Assembly: GCF_018476525.1 (NCBI RefSeq)
Contig: NZ_JAHCST010000033.1
Span: 1 to 64,000, forward strand
Length of the DNA: 64,000 bases
Reading direction: 5' to 3'
From: Acrocarpospora catenulata
Lineage (GTDB): Bacteria > Actinomycetota > Actinomycetes > Streptosporangiales > Streptosporangiaceae
Below are positions 240 through 24,506 of the stretch, one piece after another. The notes under the pieces are model-generated. The model was not told where the DNA came from. It ran no database searches and saw only the letters and a list, made by a program, of their open reading frames with translations. The position numbers and the translations under genes are program-made. Position 1 is the first letter of the stretch. Every line of letters begins with the position of its first letter.

Positions 240-2660
<2,421 letters not shown>

Positions 2661-2707
2661 TCAGGGGCGCGACAGCGGGTCAGGCGCCGTCGCGCCCCGG
2701 CTTCTGG

Positions 2708-2733
2708 GGCGGCCCCTCAGGGGAGGGGCCGCC
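2708..2733 (-). terminator. Hairpin between the GH48 and GH9 genes
   Basis: A perfect 10-bp inverted repeat (GGCGGCCCCT / AGGGGCCGCC, 6-base loop) lies 8 bases beyond the GH48 stop. It can end the GH48 transcript or reduce read-through into the GH9 gene, so the two cellulases may be made in unequal amounts. Confidence 0.6.
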
Positions 2734-2741
2734 GGGGGTGA

Positions 2742-5546: not shown

Positions 5547-5663
5547 GGGTGCGGGGTCTCCAAAAAACGGTGGTGCAGCGTGGTGATGCACCAGGAATCA
5601 TTGGTAAATGGGGGAAAGCCAGCTGGTAGTGCGGGGTTGGTGGCCATGGGATGAGGTGGATAA

Positions 5664-7039: not shown

Positions 7040-8607
7040 GCCGGGCTCCGTTCCGGCAGCGGGAGCCGTACCGTGAAGACCGCGCCCGCGTCCCCGGTCA
7101 CCTCGATGGTGCCGCCCATGCGGCGCACGGCCTGGGCGACCAGGGACAGGCCCAGGCCGCGGCCGGTGCCCTTGGTGGTCCAGCCCCGCTCGTACGCCTC
7201 CTCGGCGGCGCCGGGGTCCAACCCGGGGCCGCTGTCGGCCACCCGGATCTCACAGACGCCGCCCGAGGCCCTGAGCCGCACCTCCACCCGCGCGGGCGGG
7301 GGCCCCGACATGGCCGCCTCCATCGCGTTGTCGATCAGGTTGCCGACGATGGACACCAGGTCGTGGGTGTCCAGGCCGAGGTCGTCGAGCTCGCTGTCCT
7401 CGCTGACGCGCAGGTCGACGCCGCGCTCGCCCGCCTGGGCCGACTTGCCCAGCAGCAGGGCGGCCAGCACCGGCTCCCGGACCGCGCCGACCACCCGGTC
7501 GGTCAGCTCCTGGGCGACCCGGAGCTCCTCGGTGGCGAACGCGATGGCCTGCTGCGGTTTGCCCAGCTCGACCAGAGTGATCACGGTGTGCAGCCGGTTG
7601 GCCGACTCGTGCGCCGCCGAGCGCAGCGCCTCGGCGAACCCGCGCTCGATGTCCAGCTGCCCGGTCACGGCCTGGAGTTCAGTATGGTCACGTAGCGTGA
7701 CAACGGTGCCGAGGGAGCGAGTGCCCGATTGCACCACGGAGACGCTGACCACCAGCACGCGATCCCCCGTCAGGTGGATCTCGTCGGCGCGGTTCTCGCC
7801 GCAGGCCAGCAGCTCGGTGAGGGAGGGCGGCAGCCCGAGCGCGGTCACGTGACGACCCTCCGCGTCGTCGGGGAGACCGAGCAGCGCCCGTGCGCCATCA
7901 TTACACAACGTGAGCACGCCCGCGCCGTCCACCAGCAGCAGCCCTTCGCGGACCGCGTGCAGGATCGCCTCGTGGTAGTCGTACATCCGGCTCAGTTCGG
8001 ACGGCCCGAGGCCGCGCGTCTGCCGGCGCAGGCGGCGCCCCGTCAGGTAGGTGCCCCCGGCCCCCGCCGCCAGCCCCAGCAGCCCGGCCAGCCCGGCCTC
8101 CTCCACCTGATCCCGCAGCCGCCCGCTCACCTTCTCCACCGTGATACCGGCGCTGACCAGGGCTCTGACGGTTCCTCCCGAGTCGGCTACGGGGGTGATG
8201 GTGCGGACCGACGGCCCCAGCGTGCCGGTGTAGGTCTCGCTGACCGTCCGCCCGGCCAGCGCGGGCGCGATGGTGCCCAGGTAGCGCTTGCCGATCTGGT
8301 CCGGGAGACGGTGCGTGTACCGGATGCCGTCCGGCCTCATGATCGTGATGAAGTCCACCCCGGTGGCCGCCCGCACCTTCTCCGCGTACGGCTGGAGCGT
8401 GGCCGACGGGTCGGCCTCACCGAGCGCGGCGAGCACCGACGGCGCCGCGGCCACACTCACCGCCACCGTCCTGGTCACCCCTTCCGCGTCCTCCGCCACC
8501 AGATCACTGGCCTGGAAGTAGGCCATCACGCTACCGGCCACGACCGTCACCGCCACGACCACGATCTGGAGCACGAGCATCTGCCTGGCCAGACTCCACC
8601 GCCGCAT
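7036..8607 (-). CDS. CitA/DcuS-type sensor histidine kinase
   Basis: A 523-residue membrane kinase: TM helix (about 8-30), extracytoplasmic PAS-like sensor (about 35-175, with the RYTHRLPDQIG(K/R)YLGT-type region typical of CitA/DcuS ligand domains), second TM (about 180-200), cytoplasmic PAS (about 210-310), a short dimerisation region with phospho-His in AAHESANRLHT, and a HATPase domain (N box NLIDNAMEAA, then DSGPGLDPG and GRGLGLSLV). The family senses citrate or C4-dicarboxylates outside the cell. It pairs with the overlapping response regulator and is divergent from dctA. Confidence 0.92.
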   Translation of the reverse strand: MRRWSLARQMLVLQIVVVAVTVVAGSVMAYFQASDLVAEDAEGVTRTVAVSVAAAPSVLAALGEADPSATLQPYAEKVRAATGVDFITIMRPDGIRYTHRLPDQIGKRYLGTIAPALAGRTVSETYTGTLGPSVRTITPVADSGGTVRALVSAGITVEKVSGRLRDQVEEAGLAGLLGLAAGAGGTYLTGRRLRRQTRGLGPSELSRMYDYHEAILHAVREGLLLVDGAGVLTLCNDGARALLGLPDDAEGRHVTALGLPPSLTELLACGENRADEIHLTGDRVLVVSVSVVQSGTRSLGTVVTLRDHTELQAVTGQLDIERGFAEALRSAAHESANRLHTVITLVELGKPQQAIAFATEELRVAQELTDRVVGAVREPVLAALLLGKSAQAGERGVDLRVSEDSELDDLGLDTHDLVSIVGNLIDNAMEAAMSGPPPARVEVRLRASGGVCEIRVADSGPGLDPGAAEEAYERGWTTKGTGRGLGLSLVAQAVRRMGGTIEVTGDAGAVFTVRLPLPERSPA

Positions 8608-10960: not shown

Positions 10961-12136
10961 GTGGAACCGCTGGTGGCCGTGTTCGTGCTGCTGGGGCTGG
11001 TTGGGGTACCGGCCGCTGTGTTGTGGCGCGTGTTGCGCGGTCGGCGGGAGCTGGGGAGCGGTCCCGCCGAGCGGGCCACCTTCGAGACCCTGCACACGGC
11101 GTCGCTGGCTGCTCCGCTGCTCAGGGCCGGTCTGACCCAGGCGGGCGTCACGAAGGCGTCCCGGCATTTACGCCAGCTTCTCGGCACACCCGCCATCGCG
11201 ATCACCAACGCGGAGGGACTGCTGGTCTACGACGGAACCGGCGACCACCATTCGCAGGACGCGTTCGAGCACGCCACGGCCACCCTGAAGGACGGCCGCA
11301 CCCAGGTGCTCCAGTTGAACTGCGGCCTTCCTGAGTGCCCGATCCGGCATGCCGTGGTGGTCCCGCTGACCACTGACGATCGTGTGGTGGGGTCGCTGGC
11401 GGCATACGGGGATCATGCGTCGGCCGGGCTGGTGCGGGCGGTCCAGGAGGTCGCCCGGTGGGTGGACTCGCAACTGGAGCTGGCGGAACTCGACCGGTCC
11501 CGGACGATGCTGATGGAAGCCGAGGTCCGAGCGCTGCGGGCGCAGATCTCACCGCATTTCATCTACAACTCACTGACGACCATCGCCTCCTTCGTCCGTA
11601 CCGATCCGGAGCGGGCGCGGGAACTACTCATCGATTTCGCCGACTTCACCCGATACTCGTTCCGGCGGCACGGCGACTTCACAACCCTGTCCGAGGAACT
11701 GCACTCCATCGACCGCTACCTCACCCTGGAACGGGCGCGTTTCGGGGACCAGCTCCGGGTGACCCTGCGCATCGCCCCCGAGGTACTCGCCGTCGCCGTC
11801 CCCTTCCTCTGCCTCCAGCCGCTGGTCGAGAACGCCGTACGGCACGGCCTGGAGAGCAAGCCAGGGGTAGGACGGATCACGATCATCGCCGAGGACGCCG
11901 GCGCCGAGTGCGGCATCTCGGTCGAGGACGACGGCCTCGGAATGGACCCCGAGCGGCTACGCCGGGTCCTGGCCGGCGAAGAACGGGCGACGGGGGTCGG
12001 CCTGGCCAACGTCGACGAGCGCCTCCGGCAGGTCTACGGGGACGAATACGGCCTGATCGTGGAGACGGGGGAGGGGGCCGGAACCAAGGTGACACTGCGG
12101 CTGCCCAAGTACCGGCCCGGGGTCAGCGCCCGTTAG
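10961..12136 (+). CDS. LytS/YehU-type sensor histidine kinase
   Basis: A 391-residue kinase with a single N-terminal TM helix (about 3-24), a GAF-like region (about 65-165), a short coiled region, the His_kinase (LytS) block with phospho-His in LRAQISPHFIYNSLTT (about residue 200) and a HATPase domain (PLVENAVRHGLE, then GVGLANVDERL). It starts with GTG at 10961. In many actinomycetes I recall such a kinase directly followed by a LytTR regulator, a DUF485 protein and an SSS symporter. Here the regulator is 11.6 kb away (23748) behind an opposite-strand operon. The kinase stop codon overlaps the stop of the convergent gene at 12133. Confidence 0.9.
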   Translation: MEPLVAVFVLLGLVGVPAAVLWRVLRGRRELGSGPAERATFETLHTASLAAPLLRAGLTQAGVTKASRHLRQLLGTPAIAITNAEGLLVYDGTGDHHSQDAFEHATATLKDGRTQVLQLNCGLPECPIRHAVVVPLTTDDRVVGSLAAYGDHASAGLVRAVQEVARWVDSQLELAELDRSRTMLMEAEVRALRAQISPHFIYNSLTTIASFVRTDPERARELLIDFADFTRYSFRRHGDFTTLSEELHSIDRYLTLERARFGDQLRVTLRIAPEVLAVAVPFLCLQPLVENAVRHGLESKPGVGRITIIAEDAGAECGISVEDDGLGMDPERLRRVLAGEERATGVGLANVDERLRQVYGDEYGLIVETGEGAGTKVTLRLPKYRPGVSAR

Positions 12137-13131
12137 AGCAGGTCCGCCAGGGTGAGGTCGCGGATGTCAGGGGAGTCGCGCGCGACGAGGTGATCGGCCG
12201 CGCCAGCCGTGGCCGGCTCCAACGGCGGGACGATGCCGAGCTTGGCGGCGTCGATCTGCTCGGCGATGAACTTGGCCACGCGGGGGCGGTCCGGGGGGAC
12301 CAGGTCGGGAGAGCACCAGGCTTTGATGATGGCCTCTTTACGCAGGTCCTCGAAGGTCTCCCGGTGGCCGCGGAGCTTGGCCTCGATGGCACGGGCGATC
12401 AGGTCGGCCAGCTCGCGGGTGATGGGGTTCGGCAGTTCGGTACGGCATTCGATCCGGAGCACCAGATAGTCGATACCGGTCGGGCGGACGCCGTCCACGT
12501 GCAGCAGCCCGTCGGCGATCGTCAGTTCCCCGGGCGACTTGGGGGTGTTGAGGACCACCAGATGCCCCGCCTGCACCGGACGTCCACCTCCACCAGGCGC
12601 GAGCATGCTGAAACTGACCCCCAGAACCGGCTGCTCACCCGTGGCCTCAAGCACCGAATCCAGCCCGTCGGACACCTTCGTCGCGATCGACGCGGCCGTG
12701 GCCAGCGGCGGCCCCATCAGCCCCGCCAGCGCCCCGACCACCTGAACCGCCGCCCCCAACGGACCTCGGTCGGAGGCCCGGTACAACCCGGCCTGAACCC
12801 CCACCACTCCCGAGTTGTACGGCACTAGCGGCGACATCTGCTCATCCAGCCGAATCCCCGCCGCCATCCACACCGGCTTGCTCATCGTGCTGAAGGTGAC
12901 CGCCTCGTCCCCGAGAAAGCCGAGCGTCACCCCGCCGTGCAACGCCGGATACCAGTCAACCCCCCACGAACGCCGGTCCGCCAGGAACCCTTCCGCCAGC
13001 CAGAGGCGTATGTAGCCCTGGTAGGGCACGAGCGGTCGCGAGTCCTCCTCCGGCAGGAACACCACGGTCACCTGCTCCGCCTGCGCGGAGAACCATCCGG
13101 CCACCCGCTGCCATACGCGGTTGCTTCCCAT
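12133..13131 (-). CDS. Unrecognised protein, last gene of the CHAT-STAND operon
   Basis: A 332-residue protein I do not recognise. The N-terminal half (about 1-120) is beta-rich with many aromatic residues (WQRVAGWF, YQGYIRLWLAEGF, VDWYPALHGG). A Gly/Ala-rich segment (about 125-165) could be a membrane-interacting or amphipathic helix. After this comes a beta region (VLGVSFSMLAPG, VLRIECRTELP) and a helical C-terminus. No signal peptide or catalytic motif is visible. It follows the STAND gene by 8 bases and so belongs to the same transcript. By position it could be the effector, substrate or membrane target of the system. Its stop overlaps the stop of the convergent kinase gene. Confidence 0.8.
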   Translation of the reverse strand: MGSNRVWQRVAGWFSAQAEQVTVVFLPEEDSRPLVPYQGYIRLWLAEGFLADRRSWGVDWYPALHGGVTLGFLGDEAVTFSTMSKPVWMAAGIRLDEQMSPLVPYNSGVVGVQAGLYRASDRGPLGAAVQVVGALAGLMGPPLATAASIATKVSDGLDSVLEATGEQPVLGVSFSMLAPGGGGRPVQAGHLVVLNTPKSPGELTIADGLLHVDGVRPTGIDYLVLRIECRTELPNPITRELADLIARAIEAKLRGHRETFEDLRKEAIIKAWCSPDLVPPDRPRVAKFIAEQIDAAKLGIVPPLEPATAGAADHLVARDSPDIRDLTLADLL

Positions 13132-13139
13132 GAACGCTC

Positions 13140-16100
13140 CTAGTCCGGAAGAAACATGATCAGGTCGAAGAGAGCCCGCTCGCCCTCACGGGTCGGCTCG
13201 TGACCGGCGATGAGATTACGGAGCGGACGGAGCATGCGCAGGTAGGTCATCGGCCCGGGCTGCCCGACACCTCGGTTCAGGTACATCCAGCGGAGGCTCC
13301 TCGTCAACGCGACAACAGTCGGGCGGGCGGGTCGCGGACCCCCGCTCGCGTACGTCCGGCAGAGGTCCCTGGCCAGCCGAGCGACGTCATCCGGCAACGG
13401 GGGGATGATCAACACTGCCCGCGCCCCTTCCGCGATCAGCTGACGGGCGAAGGCCACGAAACCATAGCGCTGGTCGCCGAGAGGGCGGGGCGGGCCGTCC
13501 ACGGGGTTCGCTTGCAGGACGATCAGCGCGAGTTCGCCGGGCTTGAGGTCGCGGGCGCTGATCAGTCGCCGGTCACGCCGCGACGTCCCGCTTTCGGTGT
13601 ACTGGGGGTCATCGTCGTAGATGCCCATCCGCCATTCGCTACCCGTAGGGACCGGGGACCCCACGATATGGGTCATCCCCGGACCTTTGTCCTTCCTGGG
13701 AGTCGTGGTTGAGGCGTACAGGTGGGGTGGGCCGATGTACTGATACTGGCCCTGGGCATCCCGCCCTGCGTACCAGCCACCCTCGACCGGCCTGCCGAGC
13801 AGGCGGAACCAGAGTGGCATCCGCCGGAGGTCGGAGTTGGCATTTGCGCCCAGCCACTGCTCCCACGCGCCTTGGTCGAGACCGGGGGGCACATCGAGGC
13901 GAACGATGCCTGGTCTTTCCTCCCTCGGGAAGGGGGTGCTGAGCGTGATGTCGGGGAAGTGTTCGAGGTCGAGCCGGTGGACTGTGTCGACGGTTTCGAG
14001 ACGGCCCGACTGCCAGTGCACGATCCTCCAGCGGGTGAGCTGGTTGGTCCACGGGCTCTCCCACGCGGCGAACGACGATTGAAGGACACGCTCGACCTTC
14101 CATGGGTTCCCTCCGTGTCGATTGACCCGCAGTGTCATCCCCTCTGCCTTGGGTGGATGGACGACTCCCGAGAGCGTGGAGGTCAGTCCGAGCAAGGCAA
14201 CGACGGTGATCCACCACGGCCCTCCGAGCAGCGGCACCGCGAGGGCCGCGAGGGCTGCGAGGGTGGGTAGCGGCCCCACCGTCCAGCGGAGCCGGAAATC
14301 CGGCTCCTTCTCCGGGATGTCATCGACCCACAGGTCGGGATCGGCAACCGGCCAGTCCACACCGTCCGCCCAGTGGGCTTCATTGCTTCCCGGGTCGGGA
14401 CGCACTCCGAGCGGGAGCTCTGTCGTGTCGGGGACGTCGGGTGGCGAAACACGGTTGGGTCGCGTGCATTCCGGGACGGCGAGTACTGATGGTTGCCCAG
14501 CCACCAGGTCGGCCAGCGAAGTGGCCCGGTCGGGCCAGCCGGAATCCCCGCTGGCCAGGGCGGTGGCATACGGGCCGGACAGCTCGTCCAGGATCTTGAT
14601 GAGGGCCTCCGCCGTCGCCGGAGGTAGTGGTTCGCCGCTCGGTACCGTCCTGACCGTGGCCAGACCAGCGAGCACCAGCGCCTGGGCCGCGTGCGTGATG
14701 TCCCCCGCCTCACGTAGGTCGGCGACCGTGGACGACAGGATGGCCGCCGCACGCTCCGGGAACCTGAGGGCGAGGATTTCGGCACGCGCGAGGGCGGCAC
14801 GCCCCCGTGAACCCGGCCGTTGCTCGTCCAGATCCGGACGGAACTCGCGTGGTGTGGGCGGGCCCGGGCGAGGCGTCACCCCACGGAAGTCCTCGAGTTC
14901 GCGAATGCTCTCCCGCAGAAGATGGTCGGGTATGGCTGGCTCACCCAGATATGGCGCGGAGAATCGCCACTCTTCCCGTATCGACACCGAATCTTGCGAC
15001 TGCCACCAGCCGTACCAGCTGCCCGCCTCTTCTGGTGACTGCGGCTGCCGACCCGTCACCAGCGCGAGGGTGGTCCACGCTTCGGCCCGGACGAGCGGGG
15101 TGCCCGTGTTCGCGAGGACGCTCACCTGCGGGAAGTACCGAAGCGTCCGGTAGCGGCGGCAGAGGCGGATCAACGCGATCTGGCATTGCTCGGTGGTCTC
15201 CGCGTCGTCCCCGGCGCTGACGGCCGCGTCCAGCCAGTGGACAAGATAATCGGCGGCCTGATCTGGATGATTGAGAATGGTCAGGTATTCGGCGTTGCTG
15301 ACCATGAGTGGCGGGATCGTGTCATGAAGCCAGTTGCATGTGTCTGTCGCCCGCCGATCGTAATCGAAGTTCACCTCGCTGATGGAGTCCTGGACGAGGC
15401 CATGCCCGAGCAGGAGGTGTACGGCCAGTGAGTGAAGGCGGTCGAGATCAACACTCCAGCGAACGGCTCGATGGCTATAGTCGATCCGCAAGCCGTCGCC
15501 TATCTGCAGTTCTCTGTAATGCGACGCACTGCTGAGTAGGGTGCCACACGCCTCCTGTACGTCTTGGCCCTGAAGACCAGCGATGAGCAGCCGGGCGAGC
15601 TGGACCCTGCTGAACGGGCTCTCGGGAGGTAGCCAGTCGGCGTACCGGCCGCCGGGAGGAATCTGTATGACTCCCTTGCGGGCCAACTGACCGATTTCAT
15701 CGAGCGGTGCGAAATATTGGGACGGCTGCGACCACCAAGCGGACTCCTCGTCCCCCGCCCAGCCGCAGGCCATCAGCGCGGATTCGGCGAGAGGCCCGGC
15801 CTGTTCCGGATTCTCGCGTAGGGCGAGCACGGCGGATTGGGCGAGCGCCACGGCACTTACCATGCGGTCTGCGTTCCAGATCCGGACCTCGCCGTCGAGT
15901 GAGCTCGTCGTGAACCAGGCGCCGGATGGCGCGATGCGGATCGTCACCTCGCCGTCCGGGCGCACCTTTACATGTCCCCTCTCGTCGTGGTTGTAACTGC
16001 CCTGGCGCTCTTCGGCGTCAAGGAGCTCCACGATGCCGTCACGCGCGACTGCCAGCCAGGAACTGTGGGGGGCGATGGCCAAGCTATGAGCGCGCACACC

Positions 16101-19100
16101 CGCGAGCTCCTGCCGGGTCGTCCCGTCCGGGTTCCACAGCCGTACCTTTCCGTCGCGGGAGTGGGTGGCGAACCAGGTGGCGTCCGGGGCGATGAGAAAC
16201 CGGTCGATGTCCGGCATGAGGTTGGTGCGTAAGGTCCCGTCCGCATTCCATAGCTGGCCAATACCGTCGGTGGACGTGGTAACCAGCCACTTCCCGTCAG
16301 GTGAGATGGTCAGGCCGGTGAAGCGGCTGTGTTCGCGGGTGAGGGTCCCGCGCAGGATGCCGTCCGGCTCCCAGAGGTCGATCTCGCCTTTCCCGTCGAG
16401 GCAGGCGAGCCAGCTGCTGTCGGGCGCCGTCTCGATGGACGTGAGTTCGGGAGGCAGGATCGGCAATCCGGGTCCCGAGGGGAGGACGGCCCGCAGGGTT
16501 CCGTCGGTGTTCCAGATGTGGACGTCCTCCCTGCGCGAACGGCCGGCCAGCCAGGTTCCGTCCGGAGCGATGACGAGGCAGGGGGACTCGACCGAGAGTT
16601 GGGCGGGCAGGCTGCTATCGATATCAGAGGCGATGTCTCGTCTCGTTGGTTGCTCGGGGGCGATGCTCAGTCTCAGTGCGCCGCTGAACATGTCACGACC
16701 ATGCAAGGTGGCCAGCGGCGTGCCGTCGGAGCTGTTCCACAGGCGTGCCGTTCCGCTGGAGGCTACCGTGGCCAGCCAGGAGCCGTCCGGCGCGATGGCG
16801 ACGCTGATGATGTCGCCGGAGTCCTCGACGATGTCGGCTCGGACCGCGCCGTCCGGCCGCCAGAGGCGGAGTCGGCCCGCCTGCTCCGGGGTGGACCCGG
16901 GCCGTCGTGTCGGCGGCGGTGCCACGAACCAGGAGCTGTCGGGGGAGACGGCGAGCGAGTCGACCTGCCCAGGCTCGCCGTCGACCCTGCCCAGCGCTGA
17001 GCCGTCTGGCTTCCAGACTTCGATGACACCGGTGCCGGAAGTCGTCGCGAACCAGTTGCTGTCCGGTGCGATCCACACCTGGCGTTCCCAGTCAGGGGAA
17101 GGATCAAGGTCCTTGCGTTCCCTTCCGAGTCCTGGGGGGATCCACGTCTGGCGCTCGCGCTCCGACTCCAGGGGAAGATCGAGGTCCTCAATTCGTGGAC
17201 GCGGGTGGTGTTCGCGCCCCGGGCCCGGAGGAAGGGCGGTGTCCCCGATCAGGGGACGGAGGTCGCCGGATTTCAGTTCGCCCCATATCCCGTCCCGCAT
17301 CCATCCGTCGATCGCGGCGACCAGTGATCCCGGCGGGGCCGCACCCTCGGCCAGGATGCCGGGCAGGCGTTCGTCCAGCGGGACTTTCACCCCTGCGGCG
17401 GCCAGCCCGAGGAAGGCCCGTGCCGCCAGGGTGCGGGCCTGGGTCGGGTGCCGTTCGGCGTACTCCTCGACCTGGCGCCAGATCTCGGCGACCCCGCCTC
17501 CGCCGGTGTGGATGCGTGCCGACGCCTGGGTCGCCAGGACGGCGGCGAGGATGGTCGGGGTCATCCCGCCGGTTGCGTCACCCGTTGTCTCGGCGGCCAC
17601 CCGGGTGGTCACGTTGGCGGCCCAGGCCCAGGCGTTCTCTCGTACCGTGCGGTCTTCGATGGCCGACCAGAGGGCGGCGGCCTCCGGGAGGGGGAGGAGG
17701 CGGACGGCGGCCAGGACGGTGGAGACCGGGACGGTGTCCAGTGAAGGGGCGCTCTGGATGACGGTTGCGGCGTCGCGGCCGAGTTGGGGACGGGTGAGCG
17801 GGAAGCGGGTGGGGGCAGCCGAGGTGGTGGTGCGGAGGCGGTCGCGGAGGTGGGCGTCCACTTCGATGATTGAGGGGCGGCCGTCGGGGCCGAGTTCGAC
17901 GACCTGGATCCATTCCTGAGCGGCGAGGTCGTCGAAGACGAGGTCGGGGTCGAGGCCGAGGCGGTGCAGGGCGGGGGTGATGAGCGGGCGGTCGAACCGG
18001 CCGAGTTCGGCGACCACGGCTAGCGCGCGGGCTATGGGGGTTTCGGAGATACGGCCGATGATGCGGCGTTCGATGTAGGGGTCCCCGGACGTACCCGACA
18101 AATCAAGATCGGGGTCGCTTAGCGCCCATTCCGTGTACGCGGCCAGGTCGAACGGGTTGAAACCGAGCTGCTCCGACATGAGCGCTCGTGCCAGGATCGC
18201 AGACCGTTGACCGGTCAGTACCGCACGTTCGGCCAGGTACCCCGCAGCCTCGTCCTCGGTGAATCCCGCCACGGGCACCACGCGCAGATAGCCGCGGGGG
18301 AGCAGGACCGGCCCGGCGGCGTTCTCCTCGTCTGAGGATGACGGGGTCAGCCACCGCCGTCCTGCCAGCACGACCCGGATCTCGGGCATCCGTGCGTGAA
18401 TCAGCTCCAGGACGCGGAACGTGACCTCGATCGCGGGCGCAGGGGACCGTGGCGGATAGAGTTTCGCCAGTTCCTCGCAGGTGTCCAGGACGAGAACTGC
18501 CGGTCTCGAGAGTTCAGCCGCAAACCGCGTGAACCCGGCGACCGCCTCCTCCAACAGTCGGTCGACCACGCTCCCCTCTCGCTCCCGCCGGGACAACTCC
18601 TCGTGCAGCCGGTCAACAGCCTCCCGGAACCGGTTGTACCGAGCCTCCGCGTCCCGGGACTCGACGAAGCCGAGCAGCTCCGCCGCCAGCGCCACCAGGA
18701 TCTCCCCGGGCCGGTCTTCCGGATAGCGGGGATCGAGGTGGTCGAAGTCGATCCGGGCCACCGGGAACGGCTCCAACCCGCGATCCCGGGCGAACCGGCC
18801 GGACATCAGATACCTGACCAGCATGGTCTTCCCCATGCCGCCCTCACCCAGCAGGTGCACCGCCCACGGCACGGGCCGATCCGGTTCCTGAGCTTCGCCC
18901 CCTTCGGCGAGGGTGCGTTCGGGCAGGTCCCGATCCGACACCTCCACGGGCATCGGCCAGGAGGGGTGAATCGTCGTCCGTGTGCTGGAGGAGCCGGGCA
19001 GGATTGAGGCGGCGAGCGCGTTCTCGATCTCGCGGCGGCGCAGGTAGTGCCGGAGGAAGTGCACATCCTCGGCCTCCCGTTCTGCCCGGGACACCCGCCA

Positions 19101-20003
19101 GGCGGCACGGCGGGCCGAGTGCCCTAGATGCCCGCCGAGGGTCTCGCCGAGCATGCGGGCGACGGCGACCAGGCGTGCCGCGCCCGGGACGTCACCGGAC
19201 TCCACCCGCCGCGAGGTCTCCTGAACCAGCTGGATACCTGACGGGTCCTCCACATACAACTCCGCGACCCGGTACCAGTTGCGCAACCGGTCGAATCCGG
19301 CGGTGATGAACAACTCGTCGAAGTCGTCCCGCAGGGCGGGCAGGTCAGGCGGGGAATTGATGGCGAGGTACTGGCCAAGCGGGGGGACCCGGTCCAGGTC
19401 GACGGTCTCCGGGGGCCGAGCGATCCGCCACAGCTGCGCACAGAGTTCCGTGCGCGCCCGAGGGAGCACTGCGGGATGCACCCTCCTCAGATACGCGCTG
19501 ACCTCTGTTCGGGCGGCGGGGTGCAGCCAGAACGTGGTCTCCTCAGCCCCGTCCTCCCCGAGTGTGGGGCGGAGTTCGACCAGGTCCTGCTTGATCAGCT
19601 GATCGAGCAGATCCTGCACGTTGTCCCTCCCGAACGAGATCCGGGATGCCAGAGACTCTGTCCATTCCGGCAACAACGCCAGAATGGCGAGCGTCTCGGG
19701 CGCGAAGGCGCTGAGCCTGTCGGTACGCCGGGCGTCCGCGCGCCGATCCAGTTCGGCGTCGAGCAGTTCGGGAGTGAGTCCAGGCTGGGGCTCCTGGGCG
19801 AGCGTGGACAGGGTTCCGCCCCCGTCGAGTTCCTGGTCGAAACGGGCGGCGAGGTCCCGTCCGGGAGGGTGGGCGATGCCTAGTTCCAGATGCTCGATGT
19901 AGAGCCGCTCACACCCCACACGTCGCGCCAGCTCGCGCCGGGACATCCCCGCCTGCTCCCGGAGGAGGCGCAGCTGGGTGGCGAAGGTCGGCGGCCTGCT
20001 CAT
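13140..20003 (-). CDS. Giant HTH-STAND NTPase-WD40 protein with C-terminal CHAT-like domain
   Basis: A 2287-residue protein. Order: XRE-type helix-turn-helix (about 7-45, QAGMSRRELARRVGCERLYIEHLE); winged-helix-like and helical region (about 95-330); STAND NTPase with Walker A GEGGMGKT (386-393), Walker B VLVLDTCEE (D507) and the sensor-like strand RVVLAGRR (543-550); a winged helix (about 680-740); about ten WD40-type repeats (roughly 1030-1480, recurring APDGSWLA...LWNPDG); a long helical region; a hydrophobic pair of segments (about 1990-2030); and a C-terminal region whose pattern (LIVLQANPVDG, then FARQLIAEGARAVLIIPP) resembles the second half of a CHAT fold but without catalytic Cys. 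STAND proteins of this type act as ligand-triggered switches. The start overlaps the CHAT gene by ATGA. A TTA codon lies at 16230-16232. Confidence 0.88.
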   Translation of the reverse strand: MSRPPTFATQLRLLREQAGMSRRELARRVGCERLYIEHLELGIAHPPGRDLAARFDQELDGGGTLSTLAQEPQPGLTPELLDAELDRRADARRTDRLSAFAPETLAILALLPEWTESLASRISFGRDNVQDLLDQLIKQDLVELRPTLGEDGAEETTFWLHPAARTEVSAYLRRVHPAVLPRARTELCAQLWRIARPPETVDLDRVPPLGQYLAINSPPDLPALRDDFDELFITAGFDRLRNWYRVAELYVEDPSGIQLVQETSRRVESGDVPGAARLVAVARMLGETLGGHLGHSARRAAWRVSRAEREAEDVHFLRHYLRRREIENALAASILPGSSSTRTTIHPSWPMPVEVSDRDLPERTLAEGGEAQEPDRPVPWAVHLLGEGGMGKTMLVRYLMSGRFARDRGLEPFPVARIDFDHLDPRYPEDRPGEILVALAAELLGFVESRDAEARYNRFREAVDRLHEELSRREREGSVVDRLLEEAVAGFTRFAAELSRPAVLVLDTCEELAKLYPPRSPAPAIEVTFRVLELIHARMPEIRVVLAGRRWLTPSSSDEENAAGPVLLPRGYLRVVPVAGFTEDEAAGYLAERAVLTGQRSAILARALMSEQLGFNPFDLAAYTEWALSDPDLDLSGTSGDPYIERRIIGRISETPIARALAVVAELGRFDRPLITPALHRLGLDPDLVFDDLAAQEWIQVVELGPDGRPSIIEVDAHLRDRLRTTTSAAPTRFPLTRPQLGRDAATVIQSAPSLDTVPVSTVLAAVRLLPLPEAAALWSAIEDRTVRENAWAWAANVTTRVAAETTGDATGGMTPTILAAVLATQASARIHTGGGGVAEIWRQVEEYAERHPTQARTLAARAFLGLAAAGVKVPLDERLPGILAEGAAPPGSLVAAIDGWMRDGIWGELKSGDLRPLIGDTALPPGPGREHHPRPRIEDLDLPLESERERQTWIPPGLGRERKDLDPSPDWERQVWIAPDSNWFATTSGTGVIEVWKPDGSALGRVDGEPGQVDSLAVSPDSSWFVAPPPTRRPGSTPEQAGRLRLWRPDGAVRADIVEDSGDIISVAIAPDGSWLATVASSGTARLWNSSDGTPLATLHGRDMFSGALRLSIAPEQPTRRDIASDIDSSLPAQLSVESPCLVIAPDGTWLAGRSRREDVHIWNTDGTLRAVLPSGPGLPILPPELTSIETAPDSSWLACLDGKGEIDLWEPDGILRGTLTREHSRFTGLTISPDGKWLVTTSTDGIGQLWNADGTLRTNLMPDIDRFLIAPDATWFATHSRDGKVRLWNPDGTTRQELAGVRAHSLAIAPHSSWLAVARDGIVELLDAEERQGSYNHDERGHVKVRPDGEVTIRIAPSGAWFTTSSLDGEVRIWNADRMVSAVALAQSAVLALRENPEQAGPLAESALMACGWAGDEESAWWSQPSQYFAPLDEIGQLARKGVIQIPPGGRYADWLPPESPFSRVQLARLLIAGLQGQDVQEACGTLLSSASHYRELQIGDGLRIDYSHRAVRWSVDLDRLHSLAVHLLLGHGLVQDSISEVNFDYDRRATDTCNWLHDTIPPLMVSNAEYLTILNHPDQAADYLVHWLDAAVSAGDDAETTEQCQIALIRLCRRYRTLRYFPQVSVLANTGTPLVRAEAWTTLALVTGRQPQSPEEAGSWYGWWQSQDSVSIREEWRFSAPYLGEPAIPDHLLRESIRELEDFRGVTPRPGPPTPREFRPDLDEQRPGSRGRAALARAEILALRFPERAAAILSSTVADLREAGDITHAAQALVLAGLATVRTVPSGEPLPPATAEALIKILDELSGPYATALASGDSGWPDRATSLADLVAGQPSVLAVPECTRPNRVSPPDVPDTTELPLGVRPDPGSNEAHWADGVDWPVADPDLWVDDIPEKEPDFRLRWTVGPLPTLAALAALAVPLLGGPWWITVVALLGLTSTLSGVVHPPKAEGMTLRVNRHGGNPWKVERVLQSSFAAWESPWTNQLTRWRIVHWQSGRLETVDTVHRLDLEHFPDITLSTPFPREERPGIVRLDVPPGLDQGAWEQWLGANANSDLRRMPLWFRLLGRPVEGGWYAGRDAQGQYQYIGPPHLYASTTTPRKDKGPGMTHIVGSPVPTGSEWRMGIYDDDPQYTESGTSRRDRRLISARDLKPGELALIVLQANPVDGPPRPLGDQRYGFVAFARQLIAEGARAVLIIPPLPDDVARLARDLCRTYASGGPRPARPTVVALTRSLRWMYLNRGVGQPGPMTYLRMLRPLRNLIAGHEPTREGERALFDLIMFLPD

Positions 20004-22042
20004 AGGTCCTGCTTCAGGCCGTGGAGTTTGGCGTAGGCCTGCCAGGCGTGATCGTCATCCTCGATCCGGAAATGTCCGTAAGCGGCGAGGTCGTCGACCA
20101 TTTCGTATAGCTTGAGGGGAATCCACTTGGGCTCGCCCTTGAGCCGTTTCCGGAAGCGTTCGCGGAGCTTGTCCTGGTCGTGGTCGGGGGCGGCTACGTA
20201 CACCTTGCGAAAGTCCACGTCGGGATGCCACGGATGCAGCAGGATCCACTGGTAGCCAAGGGCGGCCTCCTCGTCCGGCAACGGGCCCAGTTCGGGGAAC
20301 ACACAGCCGCCTATTCCCGGCCGGTCGGCTTGGAAGGCCCGCAGGGCGGCGCTCTCGCTCATCGACGCTGTCGCGATCACCGGCACCGGCGACGACGGGC
20401 TGCCCAGGCCGTCCGGATTGAGCAGTTCGAGCAGCCCCGGCGCGTCCTCGGTCCAGCCCAGCGCACCCTTCCACAGGTGCAGGGCTTCCGCGAGTACCAC
20501 CGTCCGCGTGTGCTCTCCGAACGGCGGTCCCAGTTCCCGGGCCGCCATCGCGAGCGCACCCAGGTCCTCGGCCAGCAGCTCGCCGACGGAATCGGGTGAC
20601 AACTCGCCGGTGGATTTCCGGAACGCGGAGATGTCGGAGCGTAAGCGCTGGCGGGCTAAGGCCGAATCGGGCGGTTGCTCCCCGCCGAGGATCAGCGGCA
20701 CCCGGAACGGTAGCCCGAGGCCACGCCGTACCCTGAAGTCGGCGTGCATCATCTCGGTCACCACCTCCCGCAGGCTGGTGGGCGCCGACTCCTCCTTGTA
20801 GGGCAGCAGTGGCAACGGCACATGTCCCTCCTGGAGCAGCCGGAACCCGAGCTGCCGCAGCAGCCGGGTCGACCCCAGGTTCTCCAACCCGGACCTGCTG
20901 GCCGCCACCACGAAACTCGTCTTCCGGGCGAACAGCTCGTCCACCGCGTCGAAGATCGGCCGACGCCCGATGTAGACCGGCTGTTGCAGCAGGTCAAGCC
21001 GCCGGGCCAGCTCTCGGACCCGCTGCGCCGGCCCCGGATCCACCGCCCGGAACCCGGCGGGCACGGTCTGCGCCGCGTACAGCACGGGCATCGCCCAGTC
21101 GAACCGGTCCCGCGCGACAGGCCCCGCCAGCAGGGCGGCCCGCCGCCCATGCGCGACCGCCTCGGCCACCTCCTGCCCGGCCAGCAGCGAGCGGGTCATC
21201 AACCGGGAGAACATCCGGCAGGCCTGCTCGCTGATCTCCCCGGCCATCGCCGCCACCAGTGGCACGCCCGCCGCGATCAGCGCCCGCGCGATCGACGAGG
21301 TACGCTCAGGGCCGCCCGCCGTGATCCGTCCGTCGGCGGCGCTGTGGCAGCTGCTCAGCACCACGGCCAGCGGCGGCTCCGGGCGGAGCGCGTCGACCAG
21401 TTGCGCGGCGGAGACGTCCTGGCCGGCCAGCTGGATCATCGGTTCGCCGCGTTCGTCCAGCCGTCCGTGGGCCACCAGATGCACCAGGTCGGGGCGGAAG
21501 GTGGCATAGCGCTGGGCCAGCCGGTCGAGGGTCACGCCGTCGTCGAGCCGGGTGATCGCCAGGCCGCCGGACTCGCACTCCCGGGCCAGCCCGAGGAACA
21601 TCGCGCCCGGCCGGATGACCGGGTCGGTGAACAACGTGCCGCTCGCGAACAACACCCGGAGTGCCCCGGCCGCCGGGCGCGGCTCCCGATTCGCGGGAAG
21701 CGTCCGGGTGAACGCGACCAGCAGGTCCGTGGCGGCCAGCGGCTGCCGCCCGTCGTGCATCGACTCCCAGCGGAACGGCTGCAACCCCTCCGGCAGGCGC
21801 AACGCCAACTCGACTCCGCGTGCCGCCCGCACCTGGTCCAGCTGGGTGATCTCCCCCCACGCCGGGCGAAGCAGAGCGTCGAAAAGCGCGGCCCCGTGGG
21901 CCGCCACGTCGTCCCCGGCCGTGCCCAGGCGCGCCCGCAACTCCACGATCTCCAGCCGGTACGGCTCACACAGCGGTTCCCCCGCGCAGGAGACCACCAC
22001 CGTCGACTGAGTGACGGCGACATCGACCCTGGGCAGGCTCAT
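20000..22042 (-). CDS. CHAT protease fused to a degenerate NTPase module
   Basis: A 680-residue protein. The N-terminal CHAT (caspase-HetF-associated) peptidase domain (about 1-330) has both catalytic residues: His192 in LVHLVAHGRLDE and Cys232 in AVVLSSCHSA. The C-terminal half (about 355-640) looks like a P-loop NTPase fold gone bad: the Walker A position reads VVAASRSGLENLGSTRLL without GxxGxGK(T/S), and the Walker B-like strand is VVLAEALH. No HTH or TM is present. The ATG at 22042 is chosen because its duplicate copy upstream also starts MSLPR, and because the 45-codon ORF ends on it with an ATGA overlap. It ends with an ATGA overlap on the STAND gene. Two TTA codons lie at 20642-20644 and 20657-20659. 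It is the probable executioner protease of the operon. Confidence 0.88.
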   Translation of the reverse strand: MSLPRVDVAVTQSTVVVSCAGEPLCEPYRLEIVELRARLGTAGDDVAAHGAALFDALLRPAWGEITQLDQVRAARGVELALRLPEGLQPFRWESMHDGRQPLAATDLLVAFTRTLPANREPRPAAGALRVLFASGTLFTDPVIRPGAMFLGLARECESGGLAITRLDDGVTLDRLAQRYATFRPDLVHLVAHGRLDERGEPMIQLAGQDVSAAQLVDALRPEPPLAVVLSSCHSAADGRITAGGPERTSSIARALIAAGVPLVAAMAGEISEQACRMFSRLMTRSLLAGQEVAEAVAHGRRAALLAGPVARDRFDWAMPVLYAAQTVPAGFRAVDPGPAQRVRELARRLDLLQQPVYIGRRPIFDAVDELFARKTSFVVAASRSGLENLGSTRLLRQLGFRLLQEGHVPLPLLPYKEESAPTSLREVVTEMMHADFRVRRGLGLPFRVPLILGGEQPPDSALARQRLRSDISAFRKSTGELSPDSVGELLAEDLGALAMAARELGPPFGEHTRTVVLAEALHLWKGALGWTEDAPGLLELLNPDGLGSPSSPVPVIATASMSESAALRAFQADRPGIGGCVFPELGPLPDEEAALGYQWILLHPWHPDVDFRKVYVAAPDHDQDKLRERFRKRLKGEPKWIPLKLYEMVDDLAAYGHFRIEDDDHAWQAYAKLHGLKQDL

Positions 22043-22213
22043 CGGGCCACCAACCGGGAACGCGGCGGGTGCCACGGGGCCGATATCGAAGGTGTCCTGG
22101 GCAGGCTCATACGGCCACCAACCGGGCTGCCTGACGCTGCCGGGTGAATGGCGTCGACCTGGGCTCTCGGTCTCATGGGGCCACCAACTGGGCGGCCAGA
22201 CGACGGGCGATGG
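22030..22213. repeat. Tandem duplication of the peptidase/CHAT gene junction, three degenerate copies
   Basis: On the minus strand a block GTTGGTGGCC-N2-ATGAG occurs three times, at the peptidase stop, in the middle and at the CHAT start, spaced about 66-69 bases. The second and third copies continue into ATGAGCCTGCCCAGG, identical for 15 bases. A second block, CAGGTCGACGCCAT, occurs twice (at about 22147 and 22211). Together they show two rounds of duplication of the junction. Confidence 0.75.
22039..22176 (-). CDS. Bridging 45-residue ORF between peptidase and CHAT genes
   Basis: An ORF of 45 sense codons whose ATG overlaps the peptidase stop (ATGA at 22173-22176) and whose TGA overlaps the CHAT ATG (ATGA at 22039-22042). 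The first half repeats the peptidase 3' end at DNA level (CAGGTCGACGCCAT) and encodes RAQVDAIHP; the second half contains an internal ATG followed by SLPR, a duplicate of the CHAT start. It thus arose from tandem duplication of the gene junction. It is probably translated as a coupling ORF rather than making a functional peptide; the product is rich in Pro, Arg and Ser. Confidence refers to translation, which the sequence alone cannot prove. Confidence 0.4.
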   Translation of the reverse strand: MRPRAQVDAIHPAASGSPVGGRMSLPRTPSISAPWHPPRSRLVAR

Positions 22214-23531
22214 CGTCGACCTGGCTGCTCGGTGTGTCGCCCGCCATGGTTCCGGGAGGTCCGCAGCGGGGGAGTGTGGCGGACAGGTTCTCGTGCACGC
22301 GGTCCCGAGCTTTGGCGGCGGGGTGGGTCTCGGCGGCGATCACCCCTGCGGAGACGAGGACTCTGGCGGCGCTGCGTTCGTCCAGGCGGGTCAGCAAGGG
22401 ATCGTGTTCAGTCAGGCGTTCCGCCCAGATGGCGGCTAGCCCACCCGGCTGGAACCACTCCTGCCGTAGTCCCGAAATTTCGGGAAGTGAGTGGTCTTGC
22501 ACCTTCAACGCGAGTACTGCGGAGGCAGCTCGCGATATTTCCGGCATTTGTGGGATGCCGGGGCCCTGGGGTAACTCGGTGGGGTGGCCCGGGTCGCCCA
22601 AGCCCGACTGTCGGGCGATCTCGGACATCAGCGCGAGCCGTACCGACGGGGGAGGGTAGGCGTCGCCTGGACGCGGGGAACGATCCTCCTGGCCGTGCTG
22701 GAGCTCCGCGACCGCCCACAACGCGGACGGGCCGACCATGAGCACCGAGTAGGCGTCGGCGAAGAGCTCACCCGACCAGCTCACCCATTCCGGCCCGACG
22801 GCTGCCAGCGCCTCCTGCGTCGCGTAGCGCAAATCACCCAGGTCATGCTGCACGTGATGCCCGGTCTCGTGTGCGGCCAGCGTTAACCACCAGGCTTCCC
22901 GGGTAGCCCACCCGGGCAGACAAACCACAGGAATCGGTAGCTCATGGACAAAGGCCGCGACCACCGCATCCGCCGGCGCCCGCAGATCCACCGGAACCGA
23001 CACCCTGGGCGTGGCATACGCGTCGAACCGAGGCTCCAGATAGACCAGCGGCCCGCTCGGTGGCACGGCCCCCACCCGGGCGAAGGGCTCCCGCCAGCAA
23101 CTCCGCACCACCTCGTCCGCCGCCGCCAGCACCGTTCCGAAACGGGGATCCCGGCGCTGGTCGTACTTGGCCGCGTACCAGTCGAACAACCGCCGGACCA
23201 CCAGCACGCCACGGTCCAGCCGGGCACACCGCTCGTAGGTCTCCCGTGACCCCCGGATCTCCCGCGCCAGGTCGAGCTCACCGCCGAGCGCCGCCAGCAT
23301 CTCCCCGAACACCCGCTCCAGGATGCCCAGATGATCGGCGAACCGCGCGAACCGCGGATCGGCTCGCCGCGCGCCCAGCCATGACGCGGTCTCGGCGCGC
23401 AACTCCTCCACGGTGGCATTCGAGCGGTCCACCCGAGCACGGACACGGTCAGGGTGCACACGGTCAAGATACGTGCGCCCGGCCGCCCGCCTCACCCGCA
23501 GGCGCGAGCTGTGACTCCTCCGTGACGCCAT
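22173..23531 (-). CDS. HEXXH zinc metallopeptidase, first gene of the CHAT-STAND operon
   Basis: A 452-residue protein. The zinc motif HETGHH (H221, E222, H225) sits in AAHETGHHVQHDLG, and a downstream GELFADA (E255) supplies a plausible third ligand, so it resembles gluzincin-type peptidases. The N-terminal 200 residues are helical with many Arg and Glu. No signal peptide or TM is visible, so it is expected to be cytoplasmic. A TTA codon (22884-22886) lies just before the HETGHH codons. The start is uncertain: ATG at 23531 or 23540 fit, neither with a clear ribosome binding site. It is divergent from the LytTR regulator gene, 216 bases away, where the operon promoter should be. It may mature the CHAT protein or act as a second effector (inference). 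Confidence 0.82.
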   Translation of the reverse strand: MASRRSHSSRLRVRRAAGRTYLDRVHPDRVRARVDRSNATVEELRAETASWLGARRADPRFARFADHLGILERVFGEMLAALGGELDLAREIRGSRETYERCARLDRGVLVVRRLFDWYAAKYDQRRDPRFGTVLAAADEVVRSCWREPFARVGAVPPSGPLVYLEPRFDAYATPRVSVPVDLRAPADAVVAAFVHELPIPVVCLPGWATREAWWLTLAAHETGHHVQHDLGDLRYATQEALAAVGPEWVSWSGELFADAYSVLMVGPSALWAVAELQHGQEDRSPRPGDAYPPPSVRLALMSEIARQSGLGDPGHPTELPQGPGIPQMPEISRAASAVLALKVQDHSLPEISGLRQEWFQPGGLAAIWAERLTEHDPLLTRLDERSAARVLVSAGVIAAETHPAAKARDRVHENLSATLPRCGPPGTMAGDTPSSQVDAIARRLAAQLVAP

Positions 23532-23747
23532 CGACAACATCACGGGTCGCCGACGAACCCACCGCGTGCCTACGGAAGGCCAGGATCTCCTGCCCCGCAG
23601 GCGGATGGGTACGCATCCGGCCTCAAGCCGAACAACATCGACGATGGCGCCGACGACCCGATGACGCCGCGCACGCTGCTGGAGACGCCGTTGACTTCTG
23701 GGGGACGTTTCATCAGTCTCTATGGAACAAGTTATGAGGAGGCGGAC

Positions 23748-24506
23748 GTGACCGGGCTGCGGGTCCTGGCGGTCGATGACGAACAGCCCGCCCTGGAGGA
23801 CCTGGCGTACCTGCTCCGTGCTGACGCGCGCATCCGTGATGTGCTGACCGCGCGGGACGGCGCGGCGGCGCTCAAGCTCCTGGACCGGGCCATGGCCGAG
23901 GGGCGCCCGGTGGACGCGGTCTTCCTGGACATTCGCATGCGCGGTCTGGACGGGGTCGTGCTCGGCCGTCTGCTCACCCAGTTCTCCCGCCCTCCGAAGG
24001 TCGTCTTCGTCACCGCGTACGAGGACCATGCGGTGGACGCCTTCGAGTTGAAGGCCGAGGACTACCTGCTCAAACCGGTTCGCCCCGACCGGCTCGCCGA
24101 GGCCATCCGCCGGTGTGTCGGGGGCACCGGGCTACCCGGCGACAGCCGTGCCGAGCAGGACGCCGACACCATCCCGGTGGAACTGGGCGGCGTCACCCGG
24201 TTCGTGGCCAGCACCGAGGTCCGGTACGTCGAGGCTCGCGGCGACTACGCCCGCCTGCACACCGCCACCGGCAGCCACCTGGTCCGCATCCCGCTGGCGG
24301 CGCTGGAGGAACGCTGGGCCTCGGCGGGGTTCCTGCGAGTGCACCGAAGTCACCTCGTCGCCGTCCGGCACATCGACGAACTCCACATCGACTCCGGCAA
24401 ATGCGTGGTCCGCATCGGCGACACCGAGATCCCCGTCAGCCGCCGCCACACCCGCGAACTCCGCGACCTCCTGGTCCGCCGCGCCCGCAAGGCCAAACCG
24501 GAATGA
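23748..24506 (+). CDS. LytTR-family response regulator
   Basis: A 252-residue regulator: receiver domain (about 1-120, VDDEQPALED, phosphoacceptor Asp in VFLDIRMRGLDG, Lys in YLLKPV) followed by a LytTR DNA-binding domain (about 145-245, VRYVEARGDYARLHT and FLRVHRSHLVAVRHI). GTG at 23748 is preceded by AGGAGG with 5-base spacing, which fixes the start. Its cognate kinase is most likely the LytS-type protein at 10961. The downstream genes (repeat ORF, DUF485-like, symporter) are coupled to it, so the pair probably senses and controls uptake of pyruvate, acetate or a similar acid. Confidence 0.93.
   Translation: MTGLRVLAVDDEQPALEDLAYLLRADARIRDVLTARDGAAALKLLDRAMAEGRPVDAVFLDIRMRGLDGVVLGRLLTQFSRPPKVVFVTAYEDHAVDAFELKAEDYLLKPVRPDRLAEAIRRCVGGTGLPGDSRAEQDADTIPVELGGVTRFVASTEVRYVEARGDYARLHTATGSHLVRIPLAALEERWASAGFLRVHRSHLVAVRHIDELHIDSGKCVVRIGDTEIPVSRRHTRELRDLLVRRARKAKPE

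What the first reader, a model, noticed from the sequence alone, without database searches (positions are those of the whole stretch)
12133..23531. Five-ORF operon of metallopeptidase, CHAT protease and giant STAND-WD40 switch: candidate novel conflict system
Four large genes and a bridging ORF are packed with overlaps of 4 bases or an 8-base gap. The parts are those of NTP-dependent conflict systems known from multicellular bacteria (STAND NTPase, WD40 sensor, CHAT protease, HTH). I do not recall this exact set: a HEXXH peptidase, a CHAT protein with dead NTPase, a 2287-residue HTH-STAND-WD40 protein with CHAT-like tail, and an unknown 332-residue partner. A threat would be sensed by the WD40/STAND protein, leading to protease activation.
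Basis: partly seen in the sequence, partly recalled or inferred. Interest (0 to 1): 0.88.

Follow-up and report, generated by a model that had tools for sequence, protein, structure and literature searches.

The report
Protease relay with shared candidate effector
A four-gene bacterial unit joins two proteases, a giant ATP-driven switch protein and an unknown protein whose distant relatives often sit beside other kinds of protease, which suggests a protein that proteases switch on, possibly to attack the cell's own membrane.

Summary
Window 12133-23540 (minus strand) encodes a metallopeptidase (MP), a CHAT protease, a 2287-aa HTH-STAND-WD40 giant and a 332-aa protein (P332). The 'bridging ORF' is a tandem repeat of the gene junction, not a gene. 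All four genes lie together in 12 of 18 genomes with a close P332; of the other six, one copy is decayed and five were seen only in part. In the second family P332 is inverted but still adjacent. CHAT keeps His and Cys; the giant keeps its NTPase. The CHAT protein's dead NTPase and the giant's dead CHAT tail rest on motif reading and weak structure matches; profile tests were negative. A sister operon has CHAT, STAND giant and MP but no P332.

P332 is an unnamed family seen in five phyla. Of seven distant members, five lie beside a peptidase (CHAT, C14 caspase, trypsin-like, papain-like: three unrelated folds). Its model is a beta-sandwich, weakly C2-like, with a hydrophobic helical insert and a conserved C-terminal peptide after a variable linker. 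Best reading: the STAND giant activates CHAT, which cuts P332 into a membrane-active effector. Defence, cleavage and membrane action are inferred.

The parts
22173..23540 (-). MP: zincin-like metallopeptidase, 455 aa (alternative start 23531); first gene
   Evidence: No Pfam hit at E 0.1; HEXXH plus Glu in 12 of 12 aligned; weak NCBIfam YpfJ-type Zn peptidase, E 0.0026
22857..22871 (-). HETGH zinc-binding motif; likely third ligand Glu258 at 22767-22769
22028..22192 (.). Three copies of a 31-base junction repeat (spacing 66-68) that make the 45-aa 'bridging ORF' 22039-22176, judged not a gene
   Evidence: MP and CHAT overlap directly in L027, L033, L034, L037
20000..22042 (-). CHAT protease, 680 aa, with C-terminal domain
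   Evidence: Pfam CHAT 8e-20
21467..21469 (-). CHAT catalytic His192
   Evidence: invariant in 12 of 12 aligned
21347..21349 (-). CHAT catalytic Cys232
   Evidence: invariant in 12 of 12 aligned
20003..21010 (-). CHAT C-terminal domain: possible degenerate P-loop NTPase, no Walker lysine
   Evidence: 12 of 12 lack GK[ST]; sister CHAT proteins have GK[ST] after the CHAT domain in 6 of 6. Against: hhalign to the giant's STAND P 0.21 and to the sister CHAT P 0.48
13140..20003 (-). Giant STAND protein, 2287 aa
19836..19985 (-). XRE-type HTH
   Evidence: Pfam HTH_31 4.8e-9; not listed for the 8 other giants scanned (the L036 list was cut at 25 of 31, and starts are as I drew them)
18048..18866 (-). 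STAND NTPase: GEGGMGKT, VLVLDTCEEL, VVLAGRR
   Evidence: P-loop and Walker B kept in 11 of 11 aligned
15786..16844 (-). WD40 propeller region (optional, mobile module)
   Evidence: PF00400 2.2e-20; present in 5 of 9 giants scanned, N-terminal in L036
14484..15626 (-). Helical TPR-like region
   Evidence: AlphaFold2 model, Foldseek
14190..14246 (-). Predicted transmembrane stretch before the tail
   Evidence: 19-residue hydropathy of 1.8 or more near this place in 9 of 11 orthologues; none in L036, L037
13143..14036 (-). Tail, read as a pseudo-CHAT domain
   Evidence: no catalytic His or Cys at the motifs I read as CHAT-like, 11 of 11; best Foldseek match of the C-terminal half is Craspase TPR-CHAT, E 1.9e-4, but TM 0.19/0.23 and rmsd 32; hhalign to CHAT P 0.31
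12133..13131 (-). P332: beta-sandwich with helical insert and helical C-terminal region; member of a protease-associated family
   Evidence: AlphaFold2 pLDDT 84.3; orthologues; distant family
12640..12762 (-). Hydrophobic helical insert of P332 (aa 124-164)
   Evidence: 90-99th percentile of hydropathy among same-length windows in 12 core and 6 distant proteins
12136..12186 (-). Conserved C-terminal peptide of P332 after a variable linker; candidate released or inhibitory tail
   Evidence: mean column conservation 0.74 for aa 321-332 versus 0.43 for aa 301-320, 12 core proteins

Best explanation
An accessory proteolytic conflict system. The STAND giant, probably membrane-tethered, is an ATP-dependent switch: its variable WD40, HTH or TPR parts detect a trigger, and its dead CHAT-like tail docks and activates the separate live CHAT protease. 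CHAT then cuts P332 in the linker before its conserved C-terminal peptide, freeing a C2-like beta-sandwich with a hydrophobic helical insert to act at the membrane and kill or arrest the cell. MP is a core component, either a second protease in the relay or a factor that matures CHAT or P332. Shown here: four-gene linkage; live CHAT and STAND motifs; accessory insertion; sister core without P332; P332 relatives beside several kinds of protease. Suggested only: dead CHAT tail, dead NTPase in CHAT. Inferred: trigger, docking, cleavage, membrane action, defence.
For: MP-CHAT-giant order in 12 of 12 complete loci, P332 adjacent in 12 of 12 though inverted in the 4 of the second family; three more partial loci of that family show giant and P332 convergent. 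CHAT His and Cys in 12 of 12, STAND motifs in 11 of 11. TPR plus tail best match Craspase TPR-CHAT. Sister operons with CHAT, STAND giant and MP but no P332 (CHAT vs CHAT hhalign E 2.3e-18). P332-like genes directly beside C14 caspase (L030, L075), CHAT (L078), trypsin-like (L058) and papain-like (L076) genes, with catalytic motifs present by my reading; L075 also holds VMAP and MoxR genes of a described conflict system (PMC7159879, passages read). Hydrophobic insert in 18 of 18 members measured. Flanking genes adjacent in 8 of 8 operon-free relatives. Decayed copy in L029.
Against: Profile comparison gives no support for CHAT homology of the tail (P 0.31), for STAND homology of the CHAT C-terminus (P 0.21), or for likeness of our CHAT C-terminus to the sister CHAT (P 0.48); the sister tail is only weakly like CHAT (P 0.013) and like our tail (P 0.046). 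The TPR-CHAT match has TM 0.19/0.23 and most other listed hits are plain TPR or helical-repeat proteins, so the tail's own share is unknown. C2 resemblance of P332 is weak: 0 PDB matches at E 1e-3 or better. In two of seven distant P332 loci (L057, L077) no peptidase was found among the neighbours scanned; the trypsin-like hit in L058 is below Pfam's cut-off (22 vs 27.6 bits). Only 3 of 12 P332 proteins have a 19-residue stretch above 1.5 hydropathy. No cleavage site identified. No phage-resistance data.
Confidence: 0.4

Rival explanations
1. P332 is not the executioner but an adaptor or inhibitor: a C2-like lipid-binding subunit that brings various proteases to the membrane or holds them inactive; MP or other CHAT substrates are the effectors.
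For: C2-like matches fit lipid binding; P332 is last in the operon and inverted in the second family, as regulatory subunits can be; the insert is not a strong transmembrane segment.
Against: No P332 was found in the sister loci, so it is not a general need of such CHAT proteins; the variable linker and conserved C-terminal peptide suggest a processed protein.
Confidence: 0.3
2. A developmental or stress regulator of filamentous actinomycetes, in the manner of HetF-type CHAT proteins, rather than anti-phage defence.
For: Weak NCBIfam HetF hit of CHAT (E 9.6e-5); 5 of 6 sister operons lie beside his- or trp-type genes (my reading of ORFs), as a stable chromosomal gene set might.
Against: Patchy: P332 hits in 6 of 150 family genomes and 10 of 297 of the order, own included; none in the 4 other genomes of the genus searched; flanks adjacent without the operon in 8 of 8; decayed copy (L029); distant relatives on plasmids, one beside conflict-system genes.
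Confidence: 0.15
3. A conflict system in which MP is the killing enzyme, activated by CHAT; P332 is a second, optional effector.
For: MP and CHAT are kept together in both the P332 system and the sister operons, P332 is not.
Against: No evidence that MP is a zymogen; MP is first in one system and last in the other.
Confidence: 0.15

Closest known systems
Craspase (type III-E CRISPR Cas7-11 with TPR-CHAT; structures seen as database hits, papers in search listings only)
   Same: TPR-CHAT-like C-terminal half of the giant (weak structural match); a CHAT protease gated by a sensor
   Different: No CRISPR parts in the four genes; tail read as catalytically dead, live CHAT is a separate protein, sensor is a STAND NTPase
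Canu and other protease-activated pro-nuclease systems (PMC12799240: abstract, introduction and the Canu section read)
   Same: Protease paired with an effector family that different protease classes, caspase type included, have recruited
   Different: Effector there is a metallo-beta-lactamase-type nuclease; P332 shows no such domain in Pfam and has a hydrophobic insert
Bacterial gasdermin operons (recalled; only search listings seen)
   Same: Effector beside diverse proteases, release by proteolysis, membrane action
   Different: No gasdermin relationship of P332 seen in Pfam or in the Foldseek rows listed
NTP-dependent conflict systems of multicellular bacteria: VMAP, iSTAND, EACC1 (PMC7159879, PMC8195603, passages read)
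   Same: NTPase switches, peptidases, variable sensors; one P332 relative lies in a VMAP-MoxR-caspase locus
   Different: No MoxR, vWA or VMAP hit in the four window proteins; an MP-CHAT-STAND core was not in the passages read
Avs-type antiviral STAND proteins (recalled; described in a passage of PMC10907252)
   Same: STAND NTPase with repeat regions
   Different: No N-terminal effector domain recognised; the candidate effectors are separate genes

Membership tests
CHAT proteases (Pfam PF12770) | CHAT domain with His-Cys dyad | tested here: met
   E 8e-20; His192 and Cys232 in 12 of 12 aligned
STAND NTPases | P-loop, Walker B and following R motif in a multidomain switch with repeats | tested here: met
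   AAA_16 9.8e-9, above its cut-off; motifs in 11 of 11 aligned
CHAT proteases, for the giant's tail | CHAT fold | tested here: inconclusive
   Foldseek TPR-CHAT E 1.9e-4 but TM 0.19/0.23; hhalign P 0.31; model mean pLDDT 65.6
CHAT proteases, for the giant's tail | catalytic His and Cys | tested here: not met
   0 of 11 at the motifs read
P-loop NTPases, for the CHAT C-terminal domain | Walker A GK[ST] | tested here: not met
   0 of 12; homology to an NTPase itself unproven
MoxR-vWA ternary systems (VMAP, iSTAND) | MoxR and vWA proteins with VMAP or iSTAND | tested here: not met
   no such Pfam hit in the four window proteins; the library does hold VMAP models
EACC1 systems | EACC1 single-TM protein with caspase partner | tested here: inconclusive
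   no EACC1-named hit in the four window proteins or in 9 P332-family members at E up to 1; that the library holds an EACC1 model is recalled
Bacterial gasdermins | gasdermin fold and C-terminal lid released by a protease | tested here: inconclusive
   no gasdermin named in the 50 PDB rows listed of 488, no Pfam hit; release not testable here
C2 domains | eight-strand C2 beta-sandwich | tested here: inconclusive
   about 45 of 50 listed PDB rows are proteins that I know to hold C2 domains, but best E 3.6e-3 and query TM at most 0.28 in those rows
Known anti-phage defence systems (PADLOC-DB 2023) | whole-protein model match | tested here: not met
   only partial hits: SAVED_CHAT 1.7e-6 to CHAT, HTH models to the giant, PDC-M03A 0.0031 over 42 residues of MP
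Anti-phage defence function | protection against phage | not testable with these tools
   needs experiment

The most novel reading that the evidence does not exclude
P332 founds a second, gasdermin-independent family of protease-released, membrane-active executioners, a plug-in effector shared by CHAT, caspase, trypsin-like and papain-like immune proteases in at least five bacterial phyla; and in the actinobacterial version the protease is switched on by pairing a live CHAT/dead NTPase protein with a live NTPase/dead CHAT giant, a split apoptosome with reciprocal pseudo-enzymes.
Probability: 0.25. Interest if true: 0.9.

Novelty: new variant of a known kind. Interest (0 to 1): 0.66.

Why it matters
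If right, proteases of three unrelated folds converge on one uncharacterised effector family, as proteases do on pro-nucleases (PMC12799240) and gasdermins (recalled), giving a directly testable new way for bacteria to turn proteolysis into cell death. A live/dead exchange of CHAT and NTPase domains between two partner proteins would be a bacterial example of pseudo-protease control, comparable to caspase-8 and cFLIP (recalled).

Tried and rejected
Bridging ORF as a gene: rejected. Glr2806 match of the P332 profile (E 3.1e-5): rejected, three identical weak repeats, each E about 22. LAMTOR4 matches of CHAT (E 0.08-0.1) and PDZ and CHMP4B matches of P332 (E 0.26-0.44): ignored. Profile comparisons of tail with CHAT, and of the CHAT C-terminus with STAND or with the sister CHAT: negative. 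HMM of our STAND region gave no hit on the sister giants after HMMER's filters, though blastp does (best 7.4e-14). CATRA and EACC1 identity of P332: considered from the papers, no such hit. Plasmid search with P332 itself: no match; the distant relative L030 opened the wider family. Sister small protein on plasmids: none. CHAT on plasmids: one partial Calothrix hit, not followed. Six paper searches: no listed title or abstract start describes this gene set; most subscription papers are not held.

Rows dropped: before the count of seven distant P332 loci, L059 (E 2.2e-4, inside other coding frames), L026 (E 8.9e-4, stop inside) and L073 (E 0.003, not inspected). L062 giant left out of alignments, frame broken. 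L110 MP was read in a wrong frame, so HEXXH was seen in 5 of 6 sister MPs, the sixth matched by HMM only. G036, a seventh genome with a distant MP hit, was not fetched. The genome searches score only some candidates per genome (5-14 in the large ones), so absences are soft. Binomial values use assumed rates and are no control. CHAT numbering: some calls used a query starting at 22021; the gene start is 22042. On re-checking I lowered the best explanation from 0.45 to 0.4 and the novel case from 0.3 to 0.25, because of the negative profile result, the low TM of the TPR-CHAT match and the sub-threshold trypsin hit; CHAT and C14 caspase share a fold, so the partner proteases count as three unrelated folds.
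Full report
OBSERVATION. On the minus strand, four large ORFs run MP (22173-23540), CHAT (20000-22042), giant (13140-20003), P332 (12133-13131). Pfam finds CHAT (8e-20) in the second, HTH_31, AAA_16 and WD40 in the third, and nothing at E 0.1 in MP or P332. The 45-aa bridging ORF (22039-22176) is made of three tandem copies of the translation junction; in L027, L033, L034 and L037 MP and CHAT overlap by 4 bases instead. I judge that it is not a gene.

CONSERVATION. Close P332 hits came from 18 genomes: 11 of the window's family (own included) and 7 of a second family of the class. In 12 of the 18 all four genes were found in one locus: window, L027, L028, L033-L037 (six genera) and L060-L063 (one genus; giant frame broken in L062). 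One is decayed (L029). Five were seen only in part because contig or stretch ends: L031/L032, L106, L051, L052, L055; in each of these the giant lies beside P332. MP-CHAT-giant order holds in 12 of 12 complete loci. P332 follows the giant in the 8 of the first family and is inverted, abutting the giant's end, in the 4 of the second; L051, L052 and L055 are convergent too. L035 is Streptosporangium saharense (record title, equal contig length). P332 hits: 6 of 150 family genomes, 10 of 297 of the order, 11 of 394 of the class, own and distant relatives included. Of 150 family genomes three held a CHAT match along nearly the whole query, and all three hold P332.

INSERTION. In the window the operon lies between a 391-aa gene (10961-12136) and a LytTR response regulator (23661-24506). 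In 8 of 8 relatives tested in which P332 had not been found (L126-L133; four of the genus, four others) the aligned parts of these two genes lie 46-236 bases apart; L028, L033 and L034 hold the operon at the same site. L029 has pieces of MP and P332 without CHAT and giant, between neighbours of the same lengths as intact L037.

LIVE AND DEAD DOMAINS. CHAT keeps His192 and Cys232 in 12 of 12; its C-terminal domain has no GK[ST] in 12 of 12. The giant keeps P-loop, Walker B and R motif in 11 of 11; its tail has no catalytic His or Cys at the motifs that I read as CHAT-like in 11 of 11. An AlphaFold2 model of the giant's last 848 residues (mean pLDDT 65.6; helical part mostly above 75) has Craspase TPR-CHAT as best PDB match (7y8t_B, E 1.9e-4; 7xc7_D, E 9.1e-4), but with TM 0.19/0.23 and rmsd near 30; most other rows listed are helical-repeat proteins, so the tail's own share is not separated. 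Profile comparison does not support tail-CHAT (P 0.31) or CHAT C-terminus-STAND (P 0.21) homology. A hydrophobic stretch lies near the start of the tail in 9 of 11 giants. WD40 is found in 5 of 9 giants scanned, at the N-terminus in L036; an HTH was listed only for the window giant. So the sensor part varies.

SISTER OPERONS. Distant MP hits in seven genomes led to six loci fetched, L108-L113, each with CHAT, a giant and MP within about 9 kb on one strand. CHAT domains of the two systems are homologous (hhalign E 2.3e-18); His and Cys motifs are seen in the two sequences printed of six. The sister CHAT has GK[ST] after the CHAT domain in 6 of 6, yet its comparison with our CHAT C-terminus is negative (P 0.48). 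The sister giant has GGMGKT in 6 of 6 and a tail whose CHAT-like motifs read as non-catalytic; its STAND part matches ours by blastp (best 7.4e-14) but not by our HMM; its tail is weakly like CHAT (P 0.013) and like our tail (P 0.046). A small protein of 132-151 aa, one hydrophobic helix by my reading, precedes CHAT in 5 of 6. No P332 was found in these loci by HMM. So MP + CHAT + STAND giant looks like the core, and the further gene is exchangeable.

P332 FAMILY. The window P332 finds nothing on plasmids. Its distant relative in L030, 9 bases after a C14 caspase gene, finds relatives on plasmids of Pseudanabaena, Sporomusa and Prosthecochloris, and two of these find Rhizobium sp. TH2: with the actinobacteria, five phyla. 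Neighbours: L075 Pseudanabaena, between a caspase-tailed protein and a caspase, with VMAP and MoxR genes; L076 Sporomusa, a papain-like C1 peptidase; L078 Rhizobium, a GAF protein and CHAT; L058, an overlapping protein with a sub-threshold trypsin match (E 2.9e-4, 22 bits against a cut-off of 27.6) but H and GDSG motifs; L077 Prosthecochloris, a partner without peptidase match; L057, no peptidase among the neighbours scanned, and its ORF carries a TGA. So 5 of 7 distant loci have a peptidase next door, of four kinds and three folds. Three weak hits were dropped before this count. Model of P332: pLDDT 84.3. PDB matches are weak (best E 3.6e-3; 0 at 1e-3), but about 45 of the 50 rows listed of 488 are proteins that I know to hold C2 domains. 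The viral library gave one match below 1e-3, a 323-aa Hokovirus protein (E 2.1e-4, TM 0.41). A helical insert, residues 124-164, lies at the 90-99th hydropathy percentile in 12 core and 6 distant members (5-17% charged), and residues 321-332 are conserved (0.74) after a variable linker (0.43) in the 12 core proteins.

MECHANISM. I read this as sensor giant -> live CHAT -> cut P332 -> membrane action. One effector family beside several kinds of protease is the pattern shown for pro-nucleases (PMC12799240; abstract, introduction and the Canu section read) and recalled for gasdermins. Trigger, docking, cleavage and killing are inferred. MP's role is open.

KNOWN OR NEW. The parts belong to the class of NTP-dependent conflict systems described in PMC7159879 and PMC8195603 (passages read); PMC10907252 was read in passages. 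Those passages, and the titles and abstract starts listed by six paper searches, do not describe this gene set or a P332-like family. PADLOC-DB gives only partial hits for the four proteins. I rate it a new variant of a known kind, with P332 as the new element.

Noticed in passing
window 240-5591: GH9 and GH48 cellulases with CBM_2/CBM_3 modules side by side, followed by a two-component pair (6350-8607)
   Followed up: no
L108-L113: Related CHAT-giant-MP operons without P332, with a small hydrophobic-helix protein first in 5 of 6, beside his- or trp-type genes in 5 of 6
   Followed up: partly
L057 13169-14251: P332-like ORF interrupted by an in-frame TGA; no peptidase among the neighbours scanned
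   Followed up: partly
L029 8036-9524: Decayed remnant of the operon: pieces of MP and P332 at the same site as intact L037
   Followed up: partly
P332 model, window 12133-13131: Only viral structure match below 1e-3 is an uncharacterised 323-aa protein of the giant virus Hokovirus HKV1, aligned over most of its length (E 2.1e-4, TM 0.41)
   Followed up: no
L036 4862-5143: Transposase-like fragment just upstream of the MP gene (my reading of the ORF start)
   Followed up: no
L058 2617-5481: DUF4407 plus protein kinase fusion upstream of the trypsin-like/P332-like pair
   Followed up: no
L077 10624-12374: nif11-like peptide maturase and precursor near the Prosthecochloris P332 relative
   Followed up: no
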